Source: Aestuariivirga sp.
Lineage (GTDB): Bacteria > Pseudomonadota > Alphaproteobacteria > Rhizobiales > Aestuariivirgaceae
Direction of reading: 5' to 3'
Assembly (NCBI RefSeq): GCF_020252395.1
Contig: NZ_JADCDB010000028.1
Location: forward strand, 1 to 64,000
Length of the DNA stretch: 64,000 nucleotides
The notes beneath the pieces are model-generated. The model ran no database searches. It saw nothing but the letters and a program-made list of their open reading frames with translations, and was not told the DNA's origin. Every line of letters begins with the position of its first letter. The stretch's first letter is position 1. Shown piece by piece: positions 1,658-21,582 of the stretch. A program made the translations under genes and the position numbers.

Positions 1658-1680
1658 GATGCGGATAATCCTCTCCGGGG

Positions 1681-2856: not shown

Positions 2857-3851
2857 GATGGCTTGGTTCCTTGCTGGGTGCCGATGCCGGCGGGACCGTT
2901 GACCGGCCCCCTGGGTTTGAAGACATGGAGCGTGATCGACGCCGAAAGGTGCGCGCCGGGTTTGAGGCGCAGCAGCGGCGCGCGGCGTCTGATGGCTTCT
3001 CCGAGGCCCAGCGCGCAGGGCGTGGTGTTGGGCTCGATGCCGATGAGGCGGGTGCGGCCGTTCCACGGTGCGTCAGGCGTCGCTTCGAGTTCGTACCACA
3101 GCCAGGCGCAGGGAAAGCGCGCGCCGTCCCATGTGAGCAACACGGCGATGGCATCGTCCATCCGGCGGATGGCGGCCCAGGGGAAGGCGAAACCGGTGAG
3201 ATAAGCGACGCAGGCCCAGGGCTGCTGCGGATGAGCGAGGTCGATGCGGCCTCCTGTCTTCGCGGGAAGCATGGGCCATAGCCCGCCGGCGCCGGGCGCA
3301 ATCGGGTTGGCGGGCGGATCAAATTGCGCTTCACACTGGACGTGTTGCGCAGCGCAGGTGATTTCGACGGGCGCCGCGAGAAGGTCTCCGCCGAAGGTTG
3401 GATGGTGGCCCCACATCACCTCGGCGGACCTATCGCCGTCATAGCTGAGGTCTTCGGCGATGGTCAGTGTCTCGCCGTCCACGCGCATCCTGCGGCGCAT
3501 GGTGGCGGCGAGCGTGGCGAAGCGGCGGGTGAGAACGAGCGCGCCCCCGGCTTGCTCCGCCTCCCACGGCGCGAGCGAGGCTTCGCCATGGAAGCCGTGG
3601 AACACGCCGTCCACCGTGCAGGCATCGCCGCCATTGGGAAAGAGCAGCGGCCAGCCGCCGCTATAGCGCGTCAGCCATTCGGGCTCGTCGCGCGCGGCGA
3701 GGCTGGGCAAGGGTGCTTCGATGACGTCCCACGGCACGGTGCCGAGAACCGACAGGCCCGTCGGCTTGTGGCGCACAGCGGTGATGGCGCCGCCCAGCTG
3801 CGGGTTGACCGTCACCTCCAGCGACGGGCTTTCGAGCGTCACCCGCTTCAC
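2853..3851 (-). CDS. Aldose 1-epimerase/galactose mutarotase-like protein
   Basis: A 332-residue protein with the fold pattern of the galactose mutarotase-like superfamily. Features include the early GGAITAVRHKPTG stretch, GGWPLLFPNGG near residue 70, the FHGFHGEA stretch with a family histidine (about 85-95), and WGHHPTFGG around residue 150 carrying a second histidine. It would interconvert sugar anomers before oxidation. It overlaps the permease gene upstream and the dehydratase gene downstream by 4 bp each (ATGA). The C-terminal 20 residues are proline/glycine-rich and probably disordered. The exact sugar cannot be read from the sequence. Confidence 0.8.
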   Translation of the reverse strand: MKRVTLESPSLEVTVNPQLGGAITAVRHKPTGLSVLGTVPWDVIEAPLPSLAARDEPEWLTRYSGGWPLLFPNGGDACTVDGVFHGFHGEASLAPWEAEQAGGALVLTRRFATLAATMRRRMRVDGETLTIAEDLSYDGDRSAEVMWGHHPTFGGDLLAAPVEITCAAQHVQCEAQFDPPANPIAPGAGGLWPMLPAKTGGRIDLAHPQQPWACVAYLTGFAFPWAAIRRMDDAIAVLLTWDGARFPCAWLWYELEATPDAPWNGRTRLIGIEPNTTPCALGLGEAIRRRAPLLRLKPGAHLSASITLHVFKPRGPVNGPAGIGTQQGTKPS

Positions 3852-4678
3852 TTTATGGCGCCCGACATGAGGCCGCGGATGAACTGCTTCTGGAACAGCA
3901 CGTAGAGGATGAACATCGGCGCGCTGGCAATCACCATGCCCGCCATGGTGAGCGGTACCTGGTTGTTGTAGCGGCCGGAGAACACGCTGATGCCGGCCAT
4001 CAGCGTGCGCTTGGCATCATCCTGCAGGAAGATGATGGCGATCAGCAGGTCGTTCCACACATAGAGCGAGTTGACCACCACCAGCGTGACGAGTGCCGGC
4101 ATCGACAGTGGCAGCACCACCTTCGTCAGGATGGTGAACTGTCCCGCCCCGTCGATGTGGGCGGCCTCGTAGAGTTCGCGCGGCACGGTGCGGAAAAAGG
4201 TGGTGAGCAGATAGACCGAGAAGGGCGTGATGAGGCCGGCATAGATCAGAATGGCGCCCGTATAGGTGCTGACCATGCCGAGCCGGGTGTAAAGCACGAA
4301 GAGTGGCACGATCATGACGACTGGCGGCACCGCCATGAGCGAGGTGGAGACGGCGAGAAGCGTGTTCCGCCCGCGGAACGCCATTGTGGCGATGGCATAG
4401 GCACCCAGCACCGAGATGGCGGTGGAGAGGATGACTGAGCCCGCCACGAGAACTGCGCTGTTCAGCATCCAGTGCAGGAAGGGACTATCGACCAGAACGG
4501 AGCGGAAATTGTCGATGACCGGCGCCCGCGGGAATCCCAGCTTATCGACGGCATACCCGGCGTCCGACTTCAGCGCGGTGAGCACCATGTAGAGCGTGGG
4601 CACGAGGGCAAGGAAGGAAGCGATGAGCAGCACGGCCTGCTTCACCACGGCGCCTGGCTGCAGGGCCTGCGCGCTCAT
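3848..4678 (-). CDS. Carbohydrate ABC transporter permease, MalG type
   Basis: A 276-residue inner-membrane permease with six predicted helices. It carries the EAA loop (EAAHIDGAGQFTILTKVVLP) that docks on the ATPase of CUT1 sugar importers. I start it at MSAQALQ (ATG 4678), which overlaps the stop of the partner permease by 4 bp; the longer open frame is out-of-frame sequence of that gene. It pairs with the permease at 4675-5550 and the binding protein at 5612-6955. No MalK/UgpC-type ATPase is encoded in the cluster. Confidence 0.9.
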   Translation of the reverse strand: MSAQALQPGAVVKQAVLLIASFLALVPTLYMVLTALKSDAGYAVDKLGFPRAPVIDNFRSVLVDSPFLHWMLNSAVLVAGSVILSTAISVLGAYAIATMAFRGRNTLLAVSTSLMAVPPVVMIVPLFVLYTRLGMVSTYTGAILIYAGLITPFSVYLLTTFFRTVPRELYEAAHIDGAGQFTILTKVVLPLSMPALVTLVVVNSLYVWNDLLIAIIFLQDDAKRTLMAGISVFSGRYNNQVPLTMAGMVIASAPMFILYVLFQKQFIRGLMSGAIK

Positions 4679-5550
4679 TGTGTGGCCTCCGCCCGCTGGC
4701 GCACATTGAACAGCAGGAAGATAAGGATGCCGGTGACGAGGAACAGCATCACCGAGGCGGCCGCCGCGATGCCGGGCAGGCTCGACCGGATCAGCGCGTT
4801 GAAGATGTAGAGTTCGACGACCTCGGTCGAGGTGCCGGGGCCACCGCGCCCGCCGCCCATGATATAGATGTAGGAGAACACCGCCGCCAGCATGGTGATG
4901 ACGCTGACCACCACGTAGAATTCGATGACGCCGCGCATCTCGGGGATGATGATGTGCCACAGCCGGCGCCACCAGCCGGCACCGTCGATCTTGGCGGCCT
5001 CGGTCACCGATTCATCGAGGCTCAGCAGGCGGGCGAGGAACAGGATGATGCCCAAGGCCGACTCGCGCCAGATGATGAGGATCATCACCGTCCACAGCGC
5101 GACACTGGAAGAGCCGATCCAATCCAGCGCCATGAAGTCGAGGCTCATCCAGCGCAGCATCTCGTTCACGGGGCCTGAAAACTGGAACATGCGCTTCATC
5201 ACCACCGCGACGATGGGAATGGCCAGCACGAAGGGCACGAAGACGATGATGCGGTAGAGCTTCCAGCCCGCCACCCGCTCCGCCAGCAGCACCGAGACGA
5301 TGAGCGAGATTGCCACCATCACCGGAATGGCGAGCAGGAGCTGCAGGTTGTGCAGCACCGACTCCCAGAACAGCGACTGGCCGAGGATGAGCTGATAGTT
5401 GCGAAAGCCGATCCACGGCCCGTCGATGCCGCGCACCATCTTGAAGCTGAACTCGAAAATCTTCAGCAGCGGATAGCCGAAGACGAAGCCCAGCAGAGCA
5501 ACGAGCGGCAGGACATAGAGATAGGGTGTGAGCCGGGATGAAGGCGTCAT
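4675..5550 (-). CDS. Carbohydrate ABC transporter permease, MalF type
   Basis: A 291-residue permease starting MTPSSRLTPYLYVLPL, with six membrane segments and the EAA loop EAAKIDGAGWWRRLWHIIIP around residues 185-205. It forms the transmembrane pair with the MalG-type permease, to which it is coupled by an ATGA overlap. The 61-bp gap to the binding-protein gene upstream is short enough for one transcript. Family membership (CUT1 sugar importers) is clear; the substrate is not. Confidence 0.9.
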   Translation of the reverse strand: MTPSSRLTPYLYVLPLVALLGFVFGYPLLKIFEFSFKMVRGIDGPWIGFRNYQLILGQSLFWESVLHNLQLLLAIPVMVAISLIVSVLLAERVAGWKLYRIIVFVPFVLAIPIVAVVMKRMFQFSGPVNEMLRWMSLDFMALDWIGSSSVALWTVMILIIWRESALGIILFLARLLSLDESVTEAAKIDGAGWWRRLWHIIIPEMRGVIEFYVVVSVITMLAAVFSYIYIMGGGRGGPGTSTEVVELYIFNALIRSSLPGIAAAASVMLFLVTGILIFLLFNVRQRAEATQ

Positions 5551-5611
5551 GAAGCCGCGCGAGAGTGAGAGGCCGGAGCCAGCGCATGCGCATCGGTCCC
5601 GGCCGGTTGCA

Positions 5612-6955
5612 TCAGGTGGGGGAGGCGAGGTCCTTCGCCCACTTGCGGTAGTTCTCGACCATGTCGGGATTGAAGTCCTTCCATTCCTTGGCCGTGTTGG
5701 CGGCGAGCTCGCCTGCCTGTTCGCCGGTCATCGAACCGGCCACGATCTGCTGGCCGGTGGGGATGGCGGCGCGTTCGTAGAACTGACCCGGCACCAGATT
5801 GGTGACGTTGGAAATGTTGGGCGTGAGCCCCCAGTTCTGCCACAGTCCGCGCACCGAAGGATCCTGGATGACGCTGGCATCAAAGGTGGTGTTGGAGGGA
5901 AGCCAGCTGGTCGCCTCCCAGAAGGCTTTGAGCTGGTCCGGTGACTGCAGGAACTCGAGGAAGGCCGCCGCGGCCGCCGGGTCTTCGGCGTCCTTCGAGA
6001 TGCCGAGGCCCTGCACATCGACCACCGGCGTTGCCGCCAGCTTGCCCTTGCCGAAGACCGGCATGGTCATATAGCCGATCTTGCCGCCGGTCGCCTTGCT
6101 GTCGGCTGGCATTCTGGTGCCGATCGACTGGCCGATGCCGAGCTTGCCCGCCACCACGAGGTCGATGCCGGGGTAAAGCTCGAGGGACGACATGTCCTTG
6201 TTGAGGAAGCCCTTGTTCTTCAGCTCCTCGAGCTTCACCCAGTGCTCGTGATACTTGGGGTCGCGGAAGTCGCGGTCGCCGATGAAGAGCTCCACGGCCT
6301 CGCCGAAACTGTCGAGCTGCTGGGGCAGCGAGTGGGTGATGTACCATTCGCTCCAGTAGCCATCCTGAATGCCGCCGCCCAGCGCCTCGACGCCGGAGCT
6401 CTTGAGCTTGTCGCAGGCAACCAGCAGCTCGTCCCAGGTCTTGGGCGGCGCTTCGGGGTCAAGCCCCGCCTTCTCGAACAGCGCCTTGTTGTAGCACCAG
6501 AACATCGGCAACGGATACCAGCCGGTGCGATAGACGTCGCCGCCGAAGTGGCTGAGCAGCGTGGGGTTCGAGGCCGCCAGCACCTCCGGCTTGACCAGGT
6601 TGTTGAGGCCGCGAAGATAGCCCAGCCAGACGCTTTCCATGTGGTAGATGCCGTTCCACAGATACTGCACGTCGGGCGCATTGCCGGCGGCGGCCGCTGT
6701 CTGGAACTGCGAGATCACCACGGCGGTGTCCTGCAGCATGGGCTTCACATTGGCGGCCTTGTACCTCGCCACCGAGTCGTTGACGTATTTCTGCAGTCCG
6801 GGGAGCTCCTGTTCGCCCCAGTACCACATGTCCATGTCCTTGACCTGTGCGGCGGCTCCCCTGGAGAGACCGCCGAGCGCCGCGCCGCCCGCCAGCATGG
6901 CGGAGGTGAGCATTAGGCTGCGGCGAGTGAACATTGGCAATGCTCGTTCGTCCAT
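5612..6955 (-). CDS. Extracellular carbohydrate-binding protein of ABC importer (family 1)
   Basis: A 447-residue periplasmic binding protein. The N-terminus has a twin-arginine-like stretch (FTRRSLMLTS), then a hydrophobic segment ending GGLSRGAAAQ, so cleavage is likely after about residue 36. Export may be by Tat or Sec. The start MDERALP is preferred because AGGAAGG lies about 8 bases before this ATG; a second ATG seven codons in (MFTRRS) is possible. The mature part has the alternating lobes of family 1 sugar-binding proteins (WYWGEQELPG near the start, WNGIYHMES, WLPSNTTFDA). It feeds the two permeases downstream. Confidence 0.9.
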   Translation of the reverse strand: MDERALPMFTRRSLMLTSAMLAGGAALGGLSRGAAAQVKDMDMWYWGEQELPGLQKYVNDSVARYKAANVKPMLQDTAVVISQFQTAAAAGNAPDVQYLWNGIYHMESVWLGYLRGLNNLVKPEVLAASNPTLLSHFGGDVYRTGWYPLPMFWCYNKALFEKAGLDPEAPPKTWDELLVACDKLKSSGVEALGGGIQDGYWSEWYITHSLPQQLDSFGEAVELFIGDRDFRDPKYHEHWVKLEELKNKGFLNKDMSSLELYPGIDLVVAGKLGIGQSIGTRMPADSKATGGKIGYMTMPVFGKGKLAATPVVDVQGLGISKDAEDPAAAAAFLEFLQSPDQLKAFWEATSWLPSNTTFDASVIQDPSVRGLWQNWGLTPNISNVTNLVPGQFYERAAIPTGQQIVAGSMTGEQAGELAANTAKEWKDFNPDMVENYRKWAKDLASPT

Positions 6956-6998
6956 GTCGTTTCCTTCCTGTCATCTTCCAGTTGGCTTTTATGATCGC

Positions 6999-7775
6999 TC
7001 AGAACGTACTCATCAGGCCGCCGTCGACGACGAGGAGCTGACCCGTCATGTAGCGGCAGTAATCCGAGGCGAGGAACACCACCGTGCCGGACACGTCCTC
7101 CGGCAATCCGCTGCGGCCGAGCGCGATCTTGCGCCTGTCGATGTACCAGTCGACGAATTCGGGTGTGGTGGTCTCGTCGACGCCGTTCACGACCGACATC
7201 GGCGTCACCATGAAACCGGGCGCCACCGCATTGACCAGGATGTTGTGGGGCGCCAGCTCCACCGCCATGGACTTGGTATAGGCAATGAGGGCACCCTTGG
7301 CGGCATTGTAGGAGCCGCACAGGCCGCTCGAGGCGAAGCCCTGGATCGACGAGATGTGGATGATGCGGCCGCTGTTCTGACGCGCCATGATCGGCGCCAC
7401 CAGTTTCGAGCCCATGTAGACCGCCTCGAGATTGATGGCGATGGTGCGGCGCCATTCCTCCAGCGTGTCGTCGAGGATGCTTTTGGTCGCCGGATTGATG
7501 CCGGCATTGTTGACCAGCGTGTCGATGCGGCCATGGCGCGCCTCGACATCGGCGATGGTGCGCGCATAGGCATCATAGTCGGTGACGTCGAAGGCATGGA
7601 CACTGCAGTTGCCGCCACCGCGTGCGATCTCTTCGGCCACATCGACGAGCGTATTGGGGTTGCGGTCGATGAGGACCACGGTGGCGCCTTCGCGGCTCAT
7701 CTCGAGGGCGATGGCGCGGCCAAGGCCCTGGCCCGCGCCCGTTACAATGCAGATCTGGCCGTTCAAAAGACCCAT
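6999..7775 (-). CDS. SDR-family NAD(P)-dependent oxidoreductase
   Basis: A 258-residue classical short-chain dehydrogenase. It has the nucleotide-binding TGAGQGLG (12-19), NNAG (89-92), catalytic serine in ISSIQG (142/143) and the YNAAK motif (Y156, K160). An acidic residue after the second strand (LIDRN) suggests NAD preference. I start at ATG 7775 (MGLLNGQ); a GTG six codons upstream would add MWGGLA but the family begins here. It stands between the fusion-aminotransferase gene (70 bp upstream) and the sugar-binding protein gene (43 bp downstream). A sugar or sugar-alcohol dehydrogenase role in the pathway is inferred. Confidence 0.85.
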   Translation of the reverse strand: MGLLNGQICIVTGAGQGLGRAIALEMSREGATVVLIDRNPNTLVDVAEEIARGGGNCSVHAFDVTDYDAYARTIADVEARHGRIDTLVNNAGINPATKSILDDTLEEWRRTIAINLEAVYMGSKLVAPIMARQNSGRIIHISSIQGFASSGLCGSYNAAKGALIAYTKSMAVELAPHNILVNAVAPGFMVTPMSVVNGVDETTTPEFVDWYIDRRKIALGRSGLPEDVSGTVVFLASDYCRYMTGQLLVVDGGLMSTF

Positions 7776-7845
7776 CGCAAGCCCGCCCCACACAAATGCA
7801 CGACTATATGTGCGCTGGAGAAGGCGTCAAGCGCGAGGCGGGTGC

Positions 7846-10800
7846 TCATATGCGCCCCAGCGCCGCGTCCAGCGCATCCGCCATGATGTCTGCCTCGGCG
7901 AGGCCGAAGGCCATGGGCGGCTTGATCTTGAGCACATTGTCGAAGGGCCCGTCGGTGGAGATCAGCACGCCGTGATTGCGCATGTCATTGGCGATGAGGT
8001 TTGCTTTGTCTGTCGCGGGCTCCAGCGTCTCCCGGTCCTGCACCAGCTCGACGCCGAGGAACAGGCCTTCGCCGCGCACGTCGCCGATGAGCGGGTATCT
8101 TTCCGCAAGGGCATGGAAGCGCGCCTTGAGGTGATCGCCGGTGATGCGCGCCTTCTGCTGCAGACCTTCCTGCTCGAGCACGTCGAGCACCGCCATGCCG
8201 GCGGCGGCGGAGACGGGATTGCCGCCGAAAGAGGAAAAGAATTCCATACCGTTGGCAAAGGCCTTGGCGATTTCCGGCGTGGTGACGACGGCGGCCATGG
8301 GGTGGCCGTTGCCGATGGGTTTCCCAAGCGTCACGATATCCGGCACGACTCCTTGCGGCCCGTGCGCCCACATGTGGTTGCCCACGCGGCCGAAACCCGT
8401 CTGCACTTCGTCGACAATGACCAGGCCGCCGGCCTTCCGCACATGTTCGGCGGCGGTGCGGAGATAGGCTTGCGGGAAGAACACCTGGCCGCCGCAGCCC
8501 GAGATCGCCTCTGCGATGAAGGCGGCGGGGCCCTGACCCGTCTTCGCGCGGATCAGCTCCACCTTCTCGGCAACGGAGGCCGCATAGGCGATACCGCTGT
8601 TTTCCCCGGTGCCCTTGACGCGGCCGCGATAGGGATCAGCCAGTTCGGCAATCTCGACGTAATCCGGCTTGCCGCGCCCGCCCTTGCGGTTGAACTTATA
8701 GGGGCTGACGTCGATGAGGCCGTTGGTGTTGCCGTGATAGCCCCAGTCCAGCGTGATGGTGGCGCGCCGCCCCGTCACCGTGCGCGCCATGCGCAGCGCC
8801 AGCTCATTGGCCTCCGAACCCGAGCACACGAAATAGACGACGGACAACGGCCTGGGAAAATAGGAGCCCAGCCGCTCCGCATAGTCGAGGATTGTGTCGT
8901 GCAGGTAGCGCGTGTTGGTGTTGAGGATCGCCGCTTGCCGTGCGAGGGCATCCACCACATGCGGGTGGCTGTGGCCGACGTGGCAGATGTTGTTGACGCC
9001 GTCGAGGAAGGCGCGGCCGGTGTGGTCATAGAGATAGGCGCCGCGCCCGCGCACGATCTTGAGCTTCTTGCGGTAGTTGATGGACAGTGAGGGGCCCAGC
9101 ACCTGCTGGCGGCGCTTCAGCAGCACCTCAGGCGGTGTTGCGTCGCGGCTGAAGCTTTCGGGCGCGAGACGGAGGATGAGGTTGGGGTCGGGCGAGATCG
9201 CCCGCCAGATGGGCCACAGGGAGGGCTGGCCAACGCCGGGGAACTCGCCCGACTGGCCGAGCCTGTCGGTGATGATCTGGAAATGAAGATGCGGCGCCCA
9301 GCCGCCATTCACCGTGCGATCGCCGATCGTCGCGATCTGCTGGCCCGCCGCGATCTCCTGTCCGGCCTTCACCATGCCCAGCGTCTCGCGCGAGAGGTGG
9401 CCGTAGAGCGTCCAGAAGACGGGACCGGTCTCGCCGGCGCGATGCTCGAGGATGACGGTCGGGCCGTAGTCATAGGGCAGTGCATTGTCGGCGACGCTTA
9501 GCACCTTGCCCGGAAGCGGTGCATAGAGCGGCGTTCCGGCGGCGATGAAGATGTCCTGCCCCAGGTGCTGCGCGCGCCATTCGGGCGAGGCGGCACTGGC
9601 GAACTGCTCGCCCTTGTAGACATTGCGCACCTCGCCATAGAGGCCGATTGCGAACTGTGCGTTTTCGGCTCGAAAGCGGCTCTCGATCCAGCTCCAGTAG
9701 GCCTCGGCGTCGGAGGCATGTTCCATGCCGGGCGCACCCTCCTGCAGTTCGAGCAGGATGCGGCCCGAACGGTCGAGGTCGATGTCGAAAATCGGGTGCG
9801 GCCGGCAGTCTGGCGAGGCCAGCCACTGTACCACGGCAGAGCTGGCCGGCACCGGTGCAAGGCCGGCGGCCTGCCGCGTGAAGGCAGCGAGGAAGTTTGG
9901 ATTGGTCTTGTCCAGCCGGTCCAGCAGGCGGAAGGCGGGTGCCTGCGAGACGAGCAGGTAGCCGTTGTCGGGGAAGTCCTTGGCGCGGTGAGACGAGATG
10001 CAGACACTCATGGCAAGCCGCGCCGCGAGGAGGTCGAAGAGGATATCCGCTTCCTCCGCTTCGATCGGGAATTGCTGCGCATAAGCAGAAATGAGCGGGG
10101 CGGCAGACTTGTAGACGTCCTCCACGTCGAGCAGCGCATAGGCCAGCGTCACGGCGAGTTCGTTGATCTGGCGGCCATGCGTCATGTCGCCGAAGTCGAT
10201 GAGGCCGGTGACGGTGCAGGTTGAGGCGTCCACTACGATGTTGTTGTCGTTCGCATCCTGGTGCAGCACGGCGCCGCGCAGCAGGGGAAGGCGCGGCAGC
10301 ACGCGGCTCTCGTAGCGCGCGAAGATGCGGGCCACGAGGCCGCGCCGCTCCGCCACGATGTCGGGGAGCCACGGTTTCACCGCCATGGCCTCGTCGAGGT
10401 TCCACAGGAAACCGGGGCGGAAGGCGGCGGGGCGGCTAAAGCCTTTCAGGGCGCGCGACAGGCGGCCCATGAAGGCGCCCAGGCTTGCGAGCAGGGCGGG
10501 CAAACTGCCGGCCGCCGAATAGAGTTCGCCCGGCAGATAGGAGAGAAGCCGCACGGCATGGCGCGACGTGCCGTTTTCCCACCGGACGATGCCATCGCCG
10601 GAGTTGGCCGCGATGACGCGCTGCAGGCCGAGCGTGGGGTCGGCCTGCGCCACATGCTTCATCGCGGCGTTCTGCAGTGCGAGGAAGGCGTGATCCTCCA
10701 ACGCATTGGCGATCTTCAGCACGAATTTTCCGGCGGGGGAGTCGACGAGGAAGTTCTGGTCGCGCTCGCTCACCAGGTCCTTGAGCGTGCCGTCGATCCC

Positions 10801-10881
10801 GTAGTCACGCGCCAGCAGGTGGCGTGCCTCTTCTGGTGAGAAGGCGGGCTTGGGGGAGTCGAAGACGGAGATCTGGTTCAC
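7846..10881 (-). CDS. Three-domain fusion: APH-type kinase, M23 metallopeptidase-like domain, class III aminotransferase/phospho-lyase-like
   Basis: A 1011-residue single frame with three recognisable domains. Residues about 10-330 form an aminoglycoside/choline kinase-like (APH) domain with the catalytic loop H207-Q-D209...N and the DFG-like LIDFGD (D229). Residues about 420-560 form an M23/LytM-like domain that keeps all usual zinc ligands, H439-x3-D443 and H531-x-H533. Residues about 590-1011 are a class III PLP enzyme with VDEVQ (D824) and the PLP lysine K854 in [12 protein letters not shown] and class III PLP proteins are known to act in sequence on hydroxylysine and ethanolamine (kinase, then phospho-lyase), so a kinase/phospho-lyase pair on a hydroxyamine or hydroxy-amino acid is a reasonable inference. 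There is no signal peptide, so the M23 part is presumably cytoplasmic and its role is unclear. It lies 23 bp after a second class III enzyme. Confidence 0.85.
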
Positions 10882-10904
10882 GGGTCTATCCTTCGGCGCG
10901 CGGG

Positions 10905-12218
10905 CTACCAGCCCACGAATTCTTTCACGGCGTCATCGCTCACGCGGCCTTGTTCCACATCGGAGAGCGCCCTGTCGAGGAGGGAGATGGCATCGGAGGC
11001 TTGCGCCCGCGTCAGGACCAGCGGCGGGGTAAGTTCCAGCACGTTGGAGTTGAGGCCGACGTAATAGAGCACGAGCCCCAGCTCGAAGGCGCGGTAGACG
11101 GTCTTGGCGGCCAGCAGCTTGGAGGGCGTCTTCGCCATGCGGTCCGACACCAGTTCCACCCCGATCGCAAGGCCCCGGCCGCGCACATCGCCGATCGAGG
11201 GATGGCGGGCTTTCAGGCCTTCGAGGCCTTCGCGCAAGAAAGTGCCGACCGTGGCGGCGTTTTCTGCGAGACCCTCGCCTTCAATCGCGGAGAGCACGGC
11301 CGACGCGGTCGCGACGGAGACGGGATTGCCGTGCAATGTCTGCATGGCGAAGGAGGTGGCGTGGTCCATAACCGCGCGGGGACCGGCGAGGGCGGATATG
11401 GCGAGACCGCCGCCCAGCCCCTTGCCGAGGCAGACGAGGTCCGGCGTGAAGCCTTCGTGACGGAAGCAATGCATTTGCCCCGTGCGGCCGAGGCCGACCT
11501 TGACCTCGTCGCAGACGATAAGGATGCCATGAGCGCGGCACATCCCGGCGAGCTTCTTCAGGAAGCCCGGCGGCGGCATGATGAGGCCGCCGTCGGACTG
11601 GATCGGCTCGATGAACAGCGCGCCCACCTCGGCGGGCGGCAGGGTGGTGGCGAAGAGTCCGGCCAGATGCGCCAGCACGGCCGCGCCATCCTCGCCGCGA
11701 TAGGGGTTGGGATAGGGGATGAGCGTCAGGCCCTCGGCGCGGGCGGCATGGGATTGGACGGCGTGACCCGAGATCGCCATCGAGCCCGCCGTGCCGCCGT
11801 GATAGGCACCGCGGAAGGCGATGACGCGCGGCCGGCCGGTCGCGGCCGCGATGGCGCGGAACGCCGTCTCGTTGGCATCCGAGCCCGAATGGCCGAACCA
11901 CACTTTGTGGTCAGCGAGCTCCGGCAGCGTGGCGAGGATCCGCTCAGCGAGGTCAACGGCGCGGCGATGCGTGGCGGACAGGATGCTGGCGCCCGCGGGA
12001 TTCTTCACCGCCTGTGTGACGGCCTCGACGATGGCCGGATGGCCATAGCCGAGGCTTGCGGCACCCCAGGCGGCGGAGAGGTCGAGCAGGCGGCGGCCCT
12101 GTTCGTCGATGACGTAAGCGCCGTCGCCACCCTCGATCGCCAGCGGGAAGAAGCGTAGCTTCTGCAGGCCGGCGATGAGTTGTCCGTCCCGGGCATAGAT
12201 GGAATTCCCAGTCGTCAT
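10905..12218 (-). CDS. Class III pyridoxal-phosphate aminotransferase
   Basis: A 437-residue PLP enzyme of the ornithine/GABA aminotransferase group. Visible are the phosphate-binding SGSDANE (111-117), FRGAYHGGT (135-143), VCDEV (D237, cofactor ring) and the Schiff-base lysine K266 in LGKGLGGG. I choose ATG 12218 (MTTGNS) because it overlaps the stop of the LivH-type permease as TGATG; the longer frame upstream is a shadow of that permease gene. Position between an amino-acid-type importer and the kinase/phospho-lyase-like fusion suggests it deaminates the imported compound or a product of it. Substrate unknown. Confidence 0.88.
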   Translation of the reverse strand: MTTGNSIYARDGQLIAGLQKLRFFPLAIEGGDGAYVIDEQGRRLLDLSAAWGAASLGYGHPAIVEAVTQAVKNPAGASILSATHRRAVDLAERILATLPELADHKVWFGHSGSDANETAFRAIAAATGRPRVIAFRGAYHGGTAGSMAISGHAVQSHAARAEGLTLIPYPNPYRGEDGAAVLAHLAGLFATTLPPAEVGALFIEPIQSDGGLIMPPPGFLKKLAGMCRAHGILIVCDEVKVGLGRTGQMHCFRHEGFTPDLVCLGKGLGGGLAISALAGPRAVMDHATSFAMQTLHGNPVSVATASAVLSAIEGEGLAENAATVGTFLREGLEGLKARHPSIGDVRGRGLAIGVELVSDRMAKTPSKLLAAKTVYRAFELGLVLYYVGLNSNVLELTPPLVLTRAQASDAISLLDRALSDVEQGRVSDDAVKEFVGW

Positions 12219-13105
12219 CAGCTGCGCCGCGCGGCCGGGGCGGGGATCAGCCCGTCCGGCCGCCAGATGAGAATGAGGATCACGAAGCCCAGCACGAAGG
12301 CATCGCGGAAGGGGAGTGCCGCATCGGGCAGGAAGGCCTGGAACAGCACTTCGAGGATGCCGAGCGCGAAACCGCCCGCCACAGCTCCCGTGAGCGAGCC
12401 GAGCCCGCCGATGACCGCCGCGACGAAGGCCTTGAGCACCGGCACGAAGCCCATCAGCGGATCGACCGAGCCGCGCTGCGCGATCCACAATACGGCTGCG
12501 ATGCCGGCCAGCGCGCCGGACACGGCGAAGGCCACCGCGATCACCCGGTTGGCCTTGATGCCCATGAGGCGCAGCACCTGGAAATCCTCCGCCGCGGCGC
12601 GCATTGCCTTGCCCAGCGTGGTGCGGTTGAGGAAGAGCGTGAGAGCCACCAATGACAGCGCCGTCATGACGATCGAGAGCAGCGGCACGATGCCGACATG
12701 GAGGACGCCGAGGTCGATGACGCCGGCGAAGCCCGATGGCAGCGGCACGGGCTTGGGCCTGGCCGAGATGCCGTTCTGGAAGATGACGCGCAGGATGGCG
12801 GAGACGGCGAAGCTGGTGAGCAGCAACCCCGTCGCATCGGCCTTGCGCATGGGGCGGAAGGCGAAGCGCTCGGTGAGGAGTGCCGCGATCACCGCGAAGA
12901 GAACGGCGGCGCAGACGGCGAAGGGGAATGGCAGCGACACGGCAGCGGCGAAGAACATGCCATAGCCCGCCACCGTCATCAGCTCGCCATGGGCGAAGTT
13001 GATGAGCGAGACGATGGAGAAGACCACCGCGAGGCCCAGCGCCAGCAGCGCATAGATGCCGCCGAGGCTGATGGCGTTGACGATCTGCTGCAGGACGATG
13101 TCCAT
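12218..13105 (-). CDS. livH: Branched-chain-amino-acid-type ABC permease, LivH family
   Basis: A 295-residue integral membrane permease starting MDIVLQQIVNAISLGGIYAL, typical of LivH. It has about eight hydrophobic segments, the FAHGELMTVAGY motif near residue 40, and the ATPase-facing AVIGGLGSLTGAVAGG loop around residue 240. It pairs with the LivM part of the fusion at 15025-16821. It is 4 bp from livF upstream and overlaps the aminotransferase by one base. The Liv family also imports amides, urea and aromatic acids, so the symbol marks family, not substrate. Confidence 0.88.
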   Translation of the reverse strand: MDIVLQQIVNAISLGGIYALLALGLAVVFSIVSLINFAHGELMTVAGYGMFFAAAVSLPFPFAVCAAVLFAVIAALLTERFAFRPMRKADATGLLLTSFAVSAILRVIFQNGISARPKPVPLPSGFAGVIDLGVLHVGIVPLLSIVMTALSLVALTLFLNRTTLGKAMRAAAEDFQVLRLMGIKANRVIAVAFAVSGALAGIAAVLWIAQRGSVDPLMGFVPVLKAFVAAVIGGLGSLTGAVAGGFALGILEVLFQAFLPDAALPFRDAFVLGFVILILIWRPDGLIPAPAARRS

Positions 13106-13109
13106 GGGG

Positions 13110-13811
13110 TCACTCCGCCAGATAGGCCTGTTTGACGAGATCGCTGCGGGCGAGCTCCGGGCCTGAGCCTTCAAGCACGATCTGCCCCGTCTGCAGCACA
13201 TAGCCGTGATCGGCGATCTCGAGGGCGCGCTCGGCATTCTGCTCGACCAGCAGAATGGTGAGGCCGCGCTGCTTCAGGCCGAGGATCAGGTCGAAGACCT
13301 TGTCGACGATGAGCGGCGCAAGCCCAAGCGAGGGCTCGTCGAGGAGGAGAAGCTGCGGGCCCGCCATCAGCGAGCGGGCGATGGCCAGCATCTGCTGTTC
13401 GCCGCCCGAGAGGAGGCCCGCCTTCTGGCGATAGCGCTCGCGCAGAATGGGGAAGCGGTCGAGCTCCGCCTCCACCCGCTTCTTGAGCTCGTCGCCCGAG
13501 GCATGGGCCGCGCCGCCGAGGTGCAGATTGTCGGCAACCGACAGCGACGGGAAGACGCGCCGCCCCTCCGGCGTCAACGCAATGCCGCGCTTGACGATAT
13601 CCTCTGCCGGCTGGCCGGAGAGGGGCTTTCCTTCGAAGCTGATGGACCCCGTGGAGGCCACGAGACCCGCAATTGCGTTGAGGGTGGAGCTTTTGCCCGC
13701 GCCATTGGCGCCCAGCAGCACGACGACGGCGCCCTTGGATACGGATAAGCTGACGCCCTTCACGGCCGTCACCTCGCCGTACTTCACCTTCAGGCCAGAG
13801 ACCTCAAGCAT
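13110..13811 (-). CDS. livF: Branched-chain-amino-acid-type ABC ATPase, LivF family
   Basis: A 233-residue cytoplasmic ATPase. Walker A is GANGAGKS near residue 35, the ABC signature is LSGGEQQMLAIARSL near 135, and Walker B is LLLLDEPSLGLAP. The start MLEVSGLKVKYGEVTAVKGV and length are normal for LivF. It works with the LivG domain of the permease-ATPase fusion to energise one importer. Spacing is 30 bp from the binding-protein gene and 4 bp to livH, consistent with one transcript. Confidence 0.9.
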   Translation of the reverse strand: MLEVSGLKVKYGEVTAVKGVSLSVSKGAVVVLLGANGAGKSSTLNAIAGLVASTGSISFEGKPLSGQPAEDIVKRGIALTPEGRRVFPSLSVADNLHLGGAAHASGDELKKRVEAELDRFPILRERYRQKAGLLSGGEQQMLAIARSLMAGPQLLLLDEPSLGLAPLIVDKVFDLILGLKQRGLTILLVEQNAERALEIADHGYVLQTGQIVLEGSGPELARSDLVKQAYLAE

Positions 13812-13841: not shown

Positions 13842-14999
13842 TCAGGGCTTCGGCACGTCGGCCGGGTCCGGCATGGCGGTGAGGATGGGCTTTCGCTTGC
13901 CGTCCTCGATCTCAACGATGGTGATGTCGCGGATCGGCATGCGGTTGGTGCCGGCATAGGTCACCTTGCCGGTGAGCACCTCGACGTCCTTGAGGTTGGC
14001 CAGCGCATCGCGCAGGGCCGGGCCGTCGACCGATCCAGCAGCCTTCACTGCGGCATCGAGGATGTAGGGGATCTCGTAGCCGGTGGCGACATAGACGGTC
14101 TCGGGGGCGGCGCCCGTCTTCTCCTTGAACTTGTCATAGAAGGCCGCGAGCTTCGAACCGGCGACGGGCGAGCCCGCCGTGGTGTGCACGATGCCGTTGG
14201 CGATGGCGCCCAGACCGGTGATGGTCGGGCTGTCGATGCCGTCGGAGCCGATGACCGGAGCAGCGACACCCGCGCCGCGCAGCTGCTGCAGGAAGGCCGG
14301 GAAGTCCGGCTCATAGGCAGCCGTCATGATGGCGTCGGGCTGCGGGTTCATCGCCTTGATCTTGGTGACCTCGGCGGCGAAGTCCTGCTGGCCCATGGTG
14401 TAGGTGCCTTCGCCCACGATAGCGCCGCCCTTCTTCTTGAACACCTCCTCGAAATACTCCGGCAAGCGCAGCGTATAGGCGCTGTCGGGGGACTTGAGGA
14501 TGTAGATGTTCTTGTATCCCTTGCTGGCCGCATAATCGGCAAGCAGCGCCGCCTGGCCGTTGTCAGCGGGGTAGGTGCCGAACATGTAGTCGCCCACGGC
14601 TTCGGTGATGGTGGGCGTGGTGCCGCAGAAGGTGAGGGTGGGGATCTGTGCGGGCTGGCTGATCTGGCCTGCGGCGATCGAGGGGTCCGCGTCGCAAGGC
14701 GTGATCATGACCTTGACGCCGTCCGCGACCAGTTCCTGCGCCGCCTGCACCGTGGCGGCGGTATCGGTGCGCGTGTCCTTGATGTCGAGGACGATCTTGT
14801 ACTTGCCGCCAAGGCCTCCGGCGGCGTTGATTTCATCGACCGCCATCTTGAAGCCGGCCAGCGAAGGCTGGTCGGCATAGGCGAGGCCGCCGGTCTGGGC
14901 GGTGGCGAGCCCGATGGTCACATCTTCGGCGAAGGCCCCGGTGGTGAGCCCGGCGAGGCTCATGGCGCCTGCAAGCACGGTGAAACGGAAGTTCTTCAT
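13842..14999 (-). CDS. Periplasmic binding protein of Liv-type ABC importer
   Basis: A 385-residue receptor with an N-terminal Sec signal (MKNFRFTVLAGAMSLAGLTT, cleavage likely after GAFA at about residue 24). The mature sequence opens EDVTIGLATAQTGGLAYADQ, the usual start of family 5 (Leu/Ile/Val, amide or urea) receptors, and continues with the two-lobed pattern (GGKYKIVLDIKDTRTD). It delivers substrate to the LivH/LivM pair. It lies 25 bp after the LivMG fusion gene and 30 bp before livF. The ligand could be an amino acid, amine or amide. Confidence 0.9.
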   Translation of the reverse strand: MKNFRFTVLAGAMSLAGLTTGAFAEDVTIGLATAQTGGLAYADQPSLAGFKMAVDEINAAGGLGGKYKIVLDIKDTRTDTAATVQAAQELVADGVKVMITPCDADPSIAAGQISQPAQIPTLTFCGTTPTITEAVGDYMFGTYPADNGQAALLADYAASKGYKNIYILKSPDSAYTLRLPEYFEEVFKKKGGAIVGEGTYTMGQQDFAAEVTKIKAMNPQPDAIMTAAYEPDFPAFLQQLRGAGVAAPVIGSDGIDSPTITGLGAIANGIVHTTAGSPVAGSKLAAFYDKFKEKTGAAPETVYVATGYEIPYILDAAVKAAGSVDGPALRDALANLKDVEVLTGKVTYAGTNRMPIRDITIVEIEDGKRKPILTAMPDPADVPKP

Positions 15000-15024: not shown

Positions 15025-16821
15025 TCAGTGTCTTGAACGCTTGGTCCCGATATAGGCCTCGATCACCTTGGGGTCGCCGCGGATCTCCTGCGGCGTGCCC
15101 TCGGCGATCTTCTGGCCCTTGTTCAGCACCACCATGCGGTCGGACAGCCGCATGATGAGCCGCATGTCATGCTCCACCACGAGAAGCCCAATCTCGTGTT
15201 CGGAGCGGATCGATTCCAGAACGCGGATAAGCGCATCGGTTTCCGCCGGGTTCATACCGGCGGCGGGCTCGTCGAGGAGCAGGAATTTCGGTTCGAGGGC
15301 CAGTGCCCGCGCGATCTCGAGGCGCCGCCGGTCGCCATAGGCGAAGGAGCCAGCGAGGTCCTCGGCGCGGCCTGCGAGGCCGAGGCGAGCCAATTCGGCG
15401 AGCGCGATCCGCCGCGCCGTGGCCGCGTCATGGCTCTTGGACAGGGCGGCGATGGTGACGTTCTCCAGCGCGGTCATGCGGTCGAAGAGGCGGATGTTCT
15501 GGAAGGTGCGGCCAAGGCCGGCCACCGCAACGCGGTGCGGCGCCTCGCCCGTCATGTCCGCACCGCCGATGACGATGCGCCCCAAGGTCGGCCTCGTCTG
15601 GCCGCAGATGATGTTGATCAGCGTGGTCTTGCCCGCGCCATTGGGGCCGATGAGGCCCGTCACCTGGCGGCACGGCACGCTGAAGCTGATGTCGTCGAGC
15701 GCCACCAAGCCGCCGAAGCGCATGGTGATGTTGGCCACCTCAAGCGGGGCACCCGCGGGGGCGGTGTGGAGGGCCTTCGCCGGCATCGGTTCAAGCTTGC
15801 GTCTCGGCCAGTCTGGCCCGATCTCGCGCAGGCCGAGGAGGCCCAGCGGGCGGCGCCAGATGGTGAGCAGCAGGGCGAGGCCCATGCCGAGCTGCGGCAG
15901 GCCGAAGATGCCGGGAATATGGAATGAACCAAAGTCGATGCCGGTTTCCGCCTGGCGCAGGATCTGCACCACGCCAGCCAGCAGCACCGTGCCCGCCACC
16001 GCGCCGCTCACGGTGAGCATGCCGCCGACGATGAGCATGGCAACGAGCGTGAAGATCAGGTCGAAGTAGAAATCCTTGGGCGAGAAGGCGCCGAGGAAGC
16101 TGCCATAGAGTGCGCCCACCAGCACGCTCATGGCGATGCTCACCGCCCAGCCCTTGCGGCGCGACAGGCGGACGTCGACGCCCGAGGCCGCCGCCGCCAC
16201 CTCGTTCTCGCGCGCGGCGCGCAGGCGGAGGCCCAGCGGCGTCTCCTTGAGGATGCGGGCGATGAGGATGAACAGGGCCGCCGCCACGAAGGCCACATAG
16301 ACCGTGGTGAGGCGCGGCACGCCATAGAAGGTCTGGCTGCCGCGGGTGAAATCGCGCGCCCCGATCAGCGTCACATGAATGATGATCAGGAAGGCGAGCG
16401 TGCCGATCGCCGCCGAACCCGTGGACAGCCTGGCTAGCGGAAAGCCCGACAGGATACCGGCCACGAGGCCAACCGCCACGACGACGAGCAGGGCTGCAAC
16501 GAGCGACAGCTGATGACCCTGCAGCCATTGGGGCAGGTTGGGAAGAGCGGAGGCCTGGATATCCCTGGGCATGGCCAGCACGCCGAACACATAGGCGCCG
16601 ATGCCCATGAAGGCCGAGTGGCCGAAGGAGACGATGCCTGAATTGCCGCTGAAGGCGGCGAGCGCCAGCACGGCGGCGACCTGCAGCAGCGCCAGGGTCG
16701 CTATGTTGACGCCGGTGTTGCCGAAGGCGAGCGATACCGCGAGCGCAAGGCCGCCCACGCCTGCAATAAGCAACAGGGCGCTGGTCCATGCTCGGGGCGG
16801 AACGCCGGTCCAGGGCAGCAT
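15025..16821 (-). CDS. LivM-LivG fusion: ABC permease joined to ATPase
   Basis: About 598 residues. Residues 1-330 are a LivM-type permease with about ten hydrophobic segments and the GGMLTVSGAVAGT loop. Residues about 350-598 are a LivG-type ATPase with Walker A GPNGAGKTT near 390, signature FAYGDRRRLEIARAL and Walker B LLLDEPAAGMNP. The two are usually separate genes, but such fusions occur. I start at ATG 16821 (MLPWTG), preceded by AAGGA at good spacing; earlier in-frame ATGs at 16890 and 16857 have no better site. It is the first gene of the minus-strand cluster, 130 bp from the divergent RpiR regulator. Confidence 0.88.
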   Translation of the reverse strand: MLPWTGVPPRAWTSALLLIAGVGGLALAVSLAFGNTGVNIATLALLQVAAVLALAAFSGNSGIVSFGHSAFMGIGAYVFGVLAMPRDIQASALPNLPQWLQGHQLSLVAALLVVVAVGLVAGILSGFPLARLSTGSAAIGTLAFLIIIHVTLIGARDFTRGSQTFYGVPRLTTVYVAFVAAALFILIARILKETPLGLRLRAARENEVAAAASGVDVRLSRRKGWAVSIAMSVLVGALYGSFLGAFSPKDFYFDLIFTLVAMLIVGGMLTVSGAVAGTVLLAGVVQILRQAETGIDFGSFHIPGIFGLPQLGMGLALLLTIWRRPLGLLGLREIGPDWPRRKLEPMPAKALHTAPAGAPLEVANITMRFGGLVALDDISFSVPCRQVTGLIGPNGAGKTTLINIICGQTRPTLGRIVIGGADMTGEAPHRVAVAGLGRTFQNIRLFDRMTALENVTIAALSKSHDAATARRIALAELARLGLAGRAEDLAGSFAYGDRRRLEIARALALEPKFLLLDEPAAGMNPAETDALIRVLESIRSEHEIGLLVVEHDMRLIMRLSDRMVVLNKGQKIAEGTPQEIRGDPKVIEAYIGTKRSRH

Positions 16822-16912
16822 CGGGTGTCCTTGGTGTTCGAGGGCGAAGCCTAACATGGGGTTTGGAGGAGGTGTCAATATTTGTTTCAATTTGCGCGCA
16901 CCTCAGGAGTTG

Positions 16913-16951: not shown

Positions 16952-17896
16952 ATGACCAGCACTGAGGCCACAGTTTACCGCGACTCACCCGCGCGAAAGC
17001 CCAGCCGCAGCGTGCGTGACCGCCTGCTCGAGCCCAACCGCAAGTTCTCCAACTCGGAAATGAAGGCAGTGCGCGTGCTGCTCGCCAATTACCCCGCGGC
17101 CGGACTGACCACCGTGTCGAAGCTCGCCAAGCAGGCGGGGGTGAGCGACCCCACCGTGCTGCGCCTGGCGCAGCGGCTGGGCTACGACGGCTTTGCCGGC
17201 ATGCAAGAGGCGCTGCTGGCCGAGGTCGAGGCGCATATGCGCTCGCCGCTGACGCTGCCCGCCGCCGCGCCTTCGCGCAAGAAACCCAATGCCTATCAGG
17301 CGTTCTTCGCCGAGACGCTGAGCCAATGCGAGGCGGTGGTGCGCGAGACGGCGACGGCGGATTACGAGCGCGCCGTGGCGCTGCTCACCGATGCGCGCAT
17401 GGAAGTGCTGTGCCTCGGCGGCCGCTTCAGCCGCTTTCTCGCGGGCATATTGCAGCGCTGCCTGCATCACCTGCGGGAAGGCACAAGGCTGCTCGACGGC
17501 ACGGCCGCCGACCTGGTGGACGAGATCGCCTCGCTCGGCAAGCGCCATGTACTCGTCGTCTTCGACTATCGCCGCTACCAGACCGACGTGGTGCGCTTCG
17601 CTTCGGAAGCATCAGCGCGCGGCGCGCACATCATCCTGTTCACCGACCAGTGGTCCTCGCCCATCGCCGAATTCGCCGAGGTGGTCATCATCGCGCCCAC
17701 CGCCACCTCCTCGCCCTTCGACACGCTGGTGACGCCATTGCTGCAAGTGGAGGCCGTCGCCGTGGGCGTGGCCGGGCGGCTGGGGGCCGACTGGCGCAGC
17801 CGCGCCGCACTGCTCGAAGAGGTGCGCAACGATCACAGCGTGACGCTGGACTCACCCTCCGGCCTCTCCGGACGCAAACGCCAACGCAAGGGATAG
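16952..17896 (+). CDS. MurR/RpiR-family transcriptional regulator
   Basis: A 314-residue regulator with an N-terminal HTH_6 domain (about 30-105; KLAKQAGVSDPTVLRLAQRL is the recognition region) and a C-terminal SIS domain (about 130-280; VLCLGGRFSRFLAGIL and LVVFDYRRYQ). SIS domains of this family bind phosphosugars or related metabolites. It is divergent from the importer/aminotransferase cluster and 4 bp before the cysteine hydrolase gene, so it is the obvious candidate regulator of both sides. RpiR members also control amino-acid and amine catabolism. Confidence 0.9.
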   Translation: MTSTEATVYRDSPARKPSRSVRDRLLEPNRKFSNSEMKAVRVLLANYPAAGLTTVSKLAKQAGVSDPTVLRLAQRLGYDGFAGMQEALLAEVEAHMRSPLTLPAAAPSRKKPNAYQAFFAETLSQCEAVVRETATADYERAVALLTDARMEVLCLGGRFSRFLAGILQRCLHHLREGTRLLDGTAADLVDEIASLGKRHVLVVFDYRRYQTDVVRFASEASARGAHIILFTDQWSSPIAEFAEVVIIAPTATSSPFDTLVTPLLQVEAVAVGVAGRLGADWRSRAALLEEVRNDHSVTLDSPSGLSGRKRQRKG

Positions 17897-19873: not shown

Positions 19874-20622
19874 TGGATTCCACCGCACGTCTGCCGCCGC
19901 CGGTGCGCGTCATCAATGCGCAAGGGTCCTCGCCCTATGTGCTGCTGTGCGAACATGCCTCGCGCTTCATTCCCGATGAGCACAAGGGGCTTGGCCTCGG
20001 CGAGGCCGATCTGACGCGTCACATCGCCTGGGACATCGGCGCGGCTCAGGTGGCGGAAGCGCTGGCGCAGGCGCTCGATGCGCCGCTGGCGATGGCGGGC
20101 TATTCGCGCCTGCTCATCGACCTCAACCGGCCGCTGGACAGCGCCACCTCGATCCCCGAGGTGAGCGAGACCACGGTGATCCCTGGTAACCTGAACCTTG
20201 GGGCAGAGGAACGCGCGCGGCGCGTTGCGCTTTATTTTGAACCCTTCCAGGCAGCTGTGCGGCAGCTGCTCGATGCCCGGCTGGAGAAGGGCAGGGCAAC
20301 CGTCATCGTCGGCGTACACAGCTTCACGCCGGTGTTCAAGGGCGTGGCGCGGCCCTGGCATGCGGGCGTTCTCTACCGCCGGGCGCAGGACTTCGGCCAT
20401 GCGCTGGCGCAAGCGTTGGGAGGGCCCGGCCAGGCCATTGCCGAAAACCAACCCTATCAGATTGAGGATGGCAGCGACTACACCGTGCCCGTCCACGGCG
20501 AGGCGCGCGGCCTCGATGCGGTGCTGGTGGAAATCCGGCAGGATCTCATCGGCGATGCGGCGGGCGCGGCCACTTGGGCGGCGCGTCTTGCCGCGGCACT
20601 GGCCGCCGTGGCCCGGAGCTAA
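19873..20622 (+). CDS. N-formylglutamate amidohydrolase-family protein
   Basis: A 249-residue protein of the N-formylglutamate amidohydrolase (HutG-like) family. Visible motifs are LLCEHASRFIP (zinc histidine), AWDIGA, SRLLIDLNRP and VHSFTPVF, and the C-terminal HGEARGLDAVLVEIRQDL. Family members are metallohydrolases that remove formyl or related acyl groups from glutamate. Coupling to a GS-like ligase suggests it may hydrolyse an N-acyl or gamma-glutamyl product of that enzyme rather than act in histidine breakdown; no other hut gene is present. The start is ATG 19873 (TGATG overlap). Its stop overlaps that of the convergent LysR gene. Confidence 0.85.
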   Translation: MDSTARLPPPVRVINAQGSSPYVLLCEHASRFIPDEHKGLGLGEADLTRHIAWDIGAAQVAEALAQALDAPLAMAGYSRLLIDLNRPLDSATSIPEVSETTVIPGNLNLGAEERARRVALYFEPFQAAVRQLLDARLEKGRATVIVGVHSFTPVFKGVARPWHAGVLYRRAQDFGHALAQALGGPGQAIAENQPYQIEDGSDYTVPVHGEARGLDAVLVEIRQDLIGDAAGAATWAARLAAALAAVARS

Positions 20623-21482: not shown

Positions 21483-21582
21483 ATCACTTCTATAAAATAG
21501 AACGATACGCTGCAAAAGATGTAATTTTATGGAAGAGTGAATCCCCTTATGCGTCCGGAAATGCCCGGAACGGAGTCGACCG

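What the first reader, a model, noticed from the sequence alone, without database searches (positions are those of the whole stretch)
7846..10881. Kinase, M23 metallopeptidase-like domain and PLP phospho-lyase-like enzyme fused in one 1011-residue protein
One uninterrupted frame carries an APH-type kinase with catalytic HxD and DFG-like residues, an M23/LytM domain with all zinc ligands (H439/D443, H531/H533), and a class III PLP enzyme with K854. In known biology, APH-type hydroxylysine kinase and class III phospho-lyases act in sequence. The fusion may channel a phosphorylated hydroxyamine. Why a cytoplasmic protein keeps an intact M23 site is unexplained; it may cleave a peptide or gamma-glutamyl bond to release the substrate. 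Similar architectures may exist in databases, but I know of no described function.
Basis: partly seen in the sequence, partly recalled or inferred. Interest (0 to 1): 0.85.

Follow-up and report, generated by a model that had tools for sequence, protein, structure and literature searches.

The report
Kinase-peptidase-phospholyase fusion for hydroxylysine-like amines
A bacterial protein family without an assigned function fuses a small-molecule kinase, an apparently intact zinc peptidase and a phosphate-removing vitamin-B6 enzyme, and may be a one-protein route for breaking down an amino alcohol such as collagen-derived hydroxylysine.

Summary
It is not an assembly join: 107 of 153 loci examined carry the fused frame, and their record titles span seven phyla. 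NCBI already has a full-length model (NF004799, "hypothetical protein"), so the architecture is known and the function is not. The PLP domain is phospholyase-like: 48% identical to human ethanolamine-phosphate phospho-lyase and 40% to a bacterial phospholyase, against 33% or less for the other structures listed. Core kinase and PLP residues are invariant in 107 of 107 loci; all five M23 catalytic residues are intact in 106 of 107. Relatives without M23 exist as adjacent genes or a two-domain fusion; in the lyase tree the M23 form is one group (SH-aLRT 94). Some rhizobial and rhodobacterial M23 loci lie in tight clusters that combine lysine/arginine-type importers, sugar importers, glycosidases and regulators. 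This suggests (glucosyl)galactosyl-5-hydroxylysine, a collagen product. The window's own genome lacks GH42, so that step is inferred for relatives. Best reading: M23 frees the amine, the kinase phosphorylates it, the lyase yields a semialdehyde, phosphate and ammonia. No activity has been tested.

The parts
7846..10881 (-). fused protein, 1011 aa, GTG start: APH kinase, M23, class III PLP phospholyase-like
   Evidence: 107 of 153 examined loci carry the same fusion
9862..10860 (-). kinase domain, residues about 8-340; K56, D209, N214, D229
9268..9570 (-). M23 domain, residues 438-538; H439, D443, H495, H531, H533
   Evidence: Pfam; PDB M23 peptidases, best 9gy1 1.5e-10; all five residues in 106/107
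7858..9063 (-). PLP domain, residues 607-1008; K854, D824
   Evidence: Pfam; 6tor 48% and 5g4i 40% identity; K854 and D824 107/107
10889..10893 (-). AAGGA ribosome-binding-like sequence 7 bases before the GTG start
   Evidence: read directly
10905..12218 (-). second class III PLP enzyme, 437 aa; its start overlaps the stop of the permease gene (TGATG)
   Evidence: Pfam Aminotran_3 1.9e-89; sequence
12218..13237 (-). LivH-type branched-chain amino acid ABC permease
   Evidence: kept beside the fusion in L009, L012, L090 and L118
13110..13811 (-). LivF-type ABC ATPase
13842..14999 (-). Peripla_BP_6 amino acid/amide substrate-binding protein
15025..16890 (-). LivM-LivG fused permease/ATPase
16952..17896 (+). 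RpiR/SIS regulator, divergent
   Evidence: conserved in L118
17901..20622 (+). isochorismatase-type hydrolase, glutamine-synthetase-like ligase, N-formylglutamate amidohydrolase family gene
   Evidence: same kinds of genes near the fusion in Paracoccus seriniphilus L090

Best explanation
A cytoplasmic one-protein catabolic enzyme for a vicinal amino alcohol, most likely 5-hydroxylysine. The M23 domain is proposed to cleave a small peptide or amide carrying the hydroxyamine, the APH-type kinase phosphorylates the hydroxyl, and the PLP domain eliminates phosphate and ammonia to leave an aldehyde (2-aminoadipate semialdehyde if the substrate is hydroxylysine). In some Rhizobiaceae, Phyllobacteriaceae and Rhodobacterales the cluster adds sugar import or glycosidases without visible signal peptides, fitting (glucosyl)galactosyl-hydroxylysine from collagen. 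Shown: domains, conserved catalytic residues, phospholyase similarity, gene clusters, M23 loci forming one group. Inferred: kinase then lyase (about 0.85), hydroxylysine as substrate (about 0.5), M23 as an active substrate-releasing peptidase (about 0.5), glycosylated hydroxylysine in the clusters with glycosidases (about 0.4).
For: PLP domain nearest to the two solved phospholyases. Kinase (K56, D209, N214, D229), M23 and PLP residues kept in 107, 106 and 107 of 107 loci. Kinase-lyase logic also occurs as adjacent genes and as a two-domain fusion; a quick lyase tree of 98 dereplicated rows plus outgroup puts the 58 M23 rows on one side of one branch. Amino-acid signals: AsnC/Lrp regulator in 24 of 85 loci and family-3 binding proteins in 34 of 85 (redundant loci, one representative of each cluster annotated), one representative matching TIGR01096 lysine/arginine/ornithine at 199 bits, below its 256 cut-off. 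Sugar signals: at least one of three glycosidase types in 24 of 85 loci, with a family-3 binding protein as well in 20; in L019 the called start of the fusion lies 1 bp after a LacI gene and its end overlaps the GH42 start. D-aminopeptidase, P1/S58 and M55 peptidases beside L128. PMC8537180 passages name Glc-alpha1,2-Gal-beta on hydroxylysine as the collagen decoration.
Against: No enzyme was assayed. The own genome has no GH42 match. No aldehyde dehydrogenase stands among the products listed near the M23 loci or among the neighbours scanned; the nearest in the window contig is about 21 kb away. Several loci outside these groups sit among unrelated genes (topoisomerase, DNA ligase, malate synthase). 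M23 against no-M23 contrast: glycosidases 9 of 58 against 0 of 38 (p 0.011), AsnC 9 against 2 (p 0.19), family-3 binding proteins 9 against 1 (p 0.08), uncorrected for phylogeny and with reference families drawn from M23 loci. Peptidase genes also flank forms without an intact M23 (M20 before L107 and its cluster mate before L106, S58 after L116). The alpha-glycosidase-like protein is nearest to mannosyl/glucosylglycerate-type hydrolases, only weakly to YgjK. The kinase HxD histidine is tyrosine in 12 of 107 loci.
Confidence: 0.5

Rival explanations
1. Same kinase-lyase chemistry on another amino alcohol (ethanolamine, 1-amino-2-propanol or 2-hydroxyputrescine); M23 trims an acyl or gamma-glutamyl cap.
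For: Closest solved lyase is ethanolamine-phosphate phospho-lyase; aminopropanol kinase is among the top kinase folds; a glutamine-synthetase-like ligase and an N-formylglutamate amidohydrolase family gene lie near the window's cluster and in L090; two M23-less pairs lie by histone-deacetylase-family and ABC transporter genes.
Against: Lysine/arginine-type importers, AsnC regulators and galactosidases beside M23 forms fit a sugar-bearing amino acid better.
Confidence: 0.27
2. M23 is a structural or regulatory zinc domain, not a peptidase; only kinase and lyase catalyse. (Not exclusive of the other readings.)
For: No signal peptide is evident by eye; M23-less two-domain relatives exist, one in the own genome; two NF004800 members (L116, L117) keep the middle segment but retain only D443 of the five M23 residues, and L116 gives no Pfam M23 match.
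Against: The five catalytic residues are intact in 106 of 107 loci whose titles span seven phyla, including H495 and H531, which zinc binding alone would not need (recalled mechanism).
Confidence: 0.25
3. The substrate comes from peptidoglycan or another D-amino-acid peptide, and M23 acts on it as in wall hydrolases.
For: The M23 structures matched include wall hydrolases such as lysostaphin, LytM and ShyA; Shinella L128 has D-aminopeptidase and M55 genes next to the fusion.
Against: Seen in one annotated locus; galactosidase and lysine-type importers are not explained.
Confidence: 0.12
4. Ordinary class III transaminase fused to a kinase of unrelated role.
For: Relatives are annotated as aminotransferases.
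Against: Phospholyases rank first and second by sequence and structure with a wide gap; kinase and lyase are fused or adjacent in all but one of the 153 loci.
Confidence: 0.06

Closest known systems
NCBIfam NF004799 (PRK06148.1), 'hypothetical protein'
   Same: Full-length match 9-1009, over cut-off; this protein is a member
   Different: No function is attached to the model
NCBIfam NF004800 (PRK06149.1), 'aminotransferase'
   Same: Similar length (972 positions) and the same order of kinase and lyase, 697 bits
   Different: Below its 973 cut-off; the two members examined (L116, L117, 1603 and 1649 bits) have a degenerate M23 segment
Human hydroxylysine kinase (HYKK) with phosphohydroxylysine phospho-lyase (PHYKPL)
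   Same: APH-type kinase then class III phospholyase (recalled; reference and one sentence seen, the 2012 paper not held)
   Different: Separate proteins and no peptidase (recalled); neither sequence was compared here
Ethanolamine-phosphate phospho-lyase (6tor) and Arthrobacter phospholyase A1RDF1 (5g4i)
   Same: 48% and 40% identity over the PLP domain
   Different: Chains of 499 and 446 residues, so no room for kinase and M23
Microcompartment-associated aminopropanol kinase (6ef6)
   Different: 13% identity; 325-residue chain, not fused
M23 wall endopeptidases (LytM, lysostaphin, ShyA)
   Same: Sequence family and five catalytic residues
   Different: Those are exported wall enzymes (recalled); this one appears cytoplasmic and is embedded between two metabolic enzymes

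Membership tests
NF004799 / PRK06148 | Score over curated cut-off along the whole model | tested here: met
   1215 bits, cut-off 1128, residues 9-1009
NF004800 / PRK06149 | Score over curated cut-off | tested here: not met
   697.5 bits, cut-off 973
PLP-dependent phospholyase (ETNPPL/PHYKPL/A1RDF1 type) | Closer to phospholyases than to transaminases, decarboxylases and racemases | tested here: met
   Ranks 1-2 by phmmer, 1-4 by Foldseek
PLP-dependent phospholyase (ETNPPL/PHYKPL/A1RDF1 type) | Eliminates phosphate from an O-phospho amine | not testable with these tools
   needs assay
APH-superfamily small-molecule kinase | Pfam APH over cut-off, catalytic K, D, N, D present | tested here: met
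   80.3 bits, cut-off 23.2; K56, D209, N214, D229 in 107/107
Hydroxylysine kinase (HYKK) | Orthology or activity on 5-hydroxylysine | not tested
   no HYKK sequence compared; one homologous plasmid gene is named hydroxylysine kinase by its depositor
M23 metallopeptidase | Pfam M23 over cut-off with HxxxD, H, HxH | tested here: met
   67.3 bits, cut-off 28.7; residues in 106/107
M23 metallopeptidase | Zn-dependent peptide hydrolysis | not testable with these tools
   needs assay
Collagen glycosyl-hydroxylysine catabolic cluster (proposed) | Glycosidase together with a lysine-type importer next to the fusion | tested here: inconclusive
   both in 20 of 85 redundant loci, not seen around the window; no GH42 in own genome

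The most novel reading that the evidence does not exclude
A single-chain three-step catabolic machine for glycosylated hydroxylysine peptides of collagen: import, sugar removal by cytoplasmic glycosidases, then peptide cleavage, phosphorylation and phospholyase elimination in one protein. It would be a dedicated bacterial route for this animal-derived modification in soil and marine bacteria, with an M23 peptidase recruited for intracellular metabolism.
Probability: 0.3. Interest if true: 0.8.

Novelty: new variant of a known kind. Interest (0 to 1): 0.55.

Why it matters
It gives a testable function to an NCBI family still called 'hypothetical protein' whose loci carry titles of seven phyla. 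If right, it shows how bacteria reuse hydroxylysine, an amino acid of animal matrix, and gives an intracellular metabolic role to a peptidase family known from cell-wall cutting. Natural relatives without the M23 domain, and two with a degenerate one, are built-in controls.

Tried and rejected
Assembly join: rejected by independent fused frames. Window galactose-type pathway as part of the system: the SDR, sugar ABC, lactonase-like and enolase-family genes after the fusion (770-7793) are not seen after it in L118 of the same genus, nor in L009 or L012, so they were set aside. Own-genome GH42 search: none. Foldseek lists were filled by the kinase or the PLP domain, so the M23 part was not tested by fold; it rests on sequence. 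My first gene calling by length alone seemed to put antisense shadow frames into the neighbour rows; it was replaced by codon-usage scoring. In one search I used residue 493 instead of 495 for one M23 histidine; one search uses the right one. Paper searches listed no paper on this fusion in the open-licence library, judged by titles, abstract starts and the passages named in the report; most subscription papers are not in it. The one paper holding the string PRK06148 (PMC8249566, passage seen) uses it as a domain label for a Mycoplasma bovis lipoprotein in a table, with nothing on function.

Full report
OBSERVATION. The feature is on the minus strand of 7846-10881: a GTG-started frame of 1011 residues, 24 bp after the stop of the gene before it and with AAGGA 7 bases before the start. 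Pfam finds APH at 41-248, Peptidase_M23 at 438-538 and Aminotran_3 at 607-1008. NCBIfam NF004799 (PRK06148.1, 'hypothetical protein', 1015 positions) covers 9-1009 with 1215 bits against a cut-off of 1128. So the architecture is already in a curated library, without a function.

NOT A JOIN. With four plasmid loci and the window, 85 of 85 have one frame spanning kinase, M23 and PLP parts; L077 and L088 align only from query residue 52-53 on, L088 at a contig end. This is no random sample: most were found with the M23 form as query, and they are redundant; 98 remain after removal of near copies, 58 with M23. A same-genus genome has an 86% copy (L118). Phyla by record title among the 107: Pseudomonadota 59, Acidobacteriota 10, Chloroflexota 4, Gemmatimonadota 2, Actinomycetota 2, Rhodothermota 1, Bacteroidota 1, none given 28. 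The records outside Pseudomonadota are MAGs by title, so single placements may be binning errors.

THE THREE ACTIVE SITES. Over 107 loci: K56, D209, N214 and D229 of the kinase 107/107; H439 and D443 107/107, H495, H531 and H533 106/107 (only L065 deviates); K854, D824 and Q827 107/107. M23 mean conservation in 85 loci (0.52) lies above the kinase (0.42) and below the PLP domain (0.60). dN/dS in the M23 part is 0.10-0.13 against L118, L009 and L012, and 0.30 and 0.46 against the more distant L011 and L010. The full-length model has mean pLDDT 91.0 and pTM 0.85.

PLP DOMAIN. phmmer against the PDB: 6tor ethanolamine-phosphate phospho-lyase 2.7e-127, 5g4i phospholyase 4e-97, then dialkylglycine decarboxylase 1.2e-62. 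Foldseek gives the same order, 48% and 40% identity, all others of the 50 shown at 33% or less. This supports elimination chemistry over transamination. It does not tell the substrate.

M23. Nearest PDB chains are M23 peptidases (9gy1 1.5e-10; lysostaphin, LytM and ShyA weaker). No signal peptide is evident in P0001 by eye, and its partner domains are of ATP- and PLP-dependent families, so a cytoplasmic place is inferred.

FORMS WITHOUT M23. The own genome has a kinase-lyase fusion of 772 residues (L101). Others have adjacent, often overlapping kinase and lyase genes (28 of 153) or a two-domain fusion (15 of 153); one locus had a lyase without a recognised kinase. Two NF004800 members (L116, L117; 1603 and 1649 bits, cut-off 973) keep a middle segment in which only D443 of the five M23 residues remains; L116 gives no Pfam M23 match. 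In a quick IQ-TREE of 98 lyases plus an outgroup the M23 form needs one change on the tree (SH-aLRT 94, not starred), the two-domain form one, the split form two. Whether M23 was gained once or lost in the other lines is open: the L116/L117 branch joins near the long outgroup and its place is unsure. Three genomes carry all three forms, which argues for different substrates or roles. In the class, 20 of 289 genomes have the kinase at E 1e-25, 9 of them in the M23 form; in the order 16 of 199 pass the NF004799 cut-off.

NEIGHBOURS. Window: RpiR regulator, LIV-type amino acid importer and a second class III PLP enzyme, then the fusion; the importer is kept in L009, L012, L090 and L118. In 85 loci with flanks of up to 8-9 kb (redundant; genes clustered by BLAST, one representative of each cluster annotated): AsnC/Lrp 24, family-3 binding proteins 34, GH42 16, MGH1-like GH 16, GH1 8, any of the three GH types 24, GH and family-3 binding protein together 20. 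In Sinorhizobium meliloti 1021 the twelve genes from LacI to GH42, fusion included, run the same way; in L019 the called start of the fusion follows a LacI gene by 1 bp and its end overlaps GH42. The glycosidase starts printed show no signal peptide by eye. GH42 (one representative) matches 1kwg at 1.6e-214. The MGH1-like protein matches 2z07 at 6.2e-14 and YgjK only at 1.1e-4, so calling it an alpha-glucosidase is an inference.

CONTRAST TEST. Two genes on each side: 135 proteins from 34 M23 loci (random from the 46 others than the window with enough flank; one of 136 proteins dropped) against 132 from the 33 M23-less loci with enough flank, of 38. Pfam members: AsnC 6, LacI 5, GH42 3, MGH1-like 3, SBP_bac_3 3 in the first; none of these is among the 25 listed for the second, which shows SDR 7, SBP_bac_8 5, MFS 5, GntR 4, histone-deacetylase 2 (families with two or fewer members may be cut off). 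The first set also has SDR 2, MFS 2 and SBP_bac_8 2. Over 7 kb flanks in dereplicated loci: GH 9/58 against 0/38 (p 0.011), LacI 9 against 0 (p 0.011), family-3 binding 9 against 1 (p 0.08), AsnC 9 against 2 (p 0.19); uncorrected for kinship and biased, since the reference families came from M23 loci. The difference is suggestive, not proof.

PEPTIDE SIGNALS. L128 has AsnC, D-aminopeptidase, P1/S58 and M55 peptidases next to the fusion; L074 an M28, L033 an S8 peptidase and L036 an amidohydrolase. But forms without an intact M23 also have them: M20 before L107 (and its cluster mate before L106) and an oligopeptide-type ATPase near L114, and S58 follows L116. This fits a peptide or amide source for the whole kinase-lyase family, with M23 as one way of opening it.

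MECHANISM. Peptide or amide of a vicinal amino alcohol; M23 hydrolysis; ATP phosphorylation of the hydroxyl; PLP elimination of phosphate with loss of ammonia to an aldehyde. Hydroxylysine is chosen because it carries the glucosyl-galactosyl decoration in collagen (PMC8537180 passages) and because mammals use a hydroxylysine kinase and phospholyase (reference title and one sentence seen; the 2012 paper is not held). Glycyl specificity of M23 peptidases and the Hyl-Gly bonds of collagen are recalled, not tested.

PAPERS. PMC8154272, PMC9061262, PMC8537180, PMC6620236, PMC6787980, PMC9283133 and PMC8249566: passages only. Others: search listings. PMC6620236 predicts a transaminase step for the aminopropanol locus, so a kinase-phospholyase order there is recalled, not taken from it.

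VERDICT. Real and conserved, functionally undescribed in what I could search, and filed by NCBI as a hypothetical family: a new variant of the known kinase-phospholyase pair.

Noticed in passing
window 770-7793, minus strand: SDR, sugar-type binding protein and permeases, an enolase-superfamily (galactonate dehydratase-like) gene and an SMP-30 lactonase-family gene look like an oxidative sugar pathway; 2853-3851 has no Pfam match. The set is not seen after the fusion in L118, L009 or L012.
   Followed up: partly
window 21583-25539, plus strand: NuoL-like subunit followed by DabA (PF10070, 1.9e-244): a probable DAB inorganic carbon transporter; the LysR-type reading of 20619-21830 is by eye only.
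   Followed up: partly
L116 7193-10117, L117 7756-10674: NF004800 members whose M23 segment keeps only one of the five catalytic residues, an apparent natural inactivation of the middle domain.
   Followed up: yes
L101 (own genome) 5104-12125 and onward: A second kinase-lyase system without M23, again near a class III aminotransferase, a binding protein and a glutamine-synthetase-like gene.
   Followed up: partly
L065 7989-10970: The only M23 form of 107 with lost catalytic histidines (H495, H531 and H533 positions).
   Followed up: no
L121 1907-2947, L126 3985-5010: Histone-deacetylase-family genes beside M23-less kinase-lyase pairs, which may hint at acetylated or hydroxylated polyamines as substrates there.
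   Followed up: no
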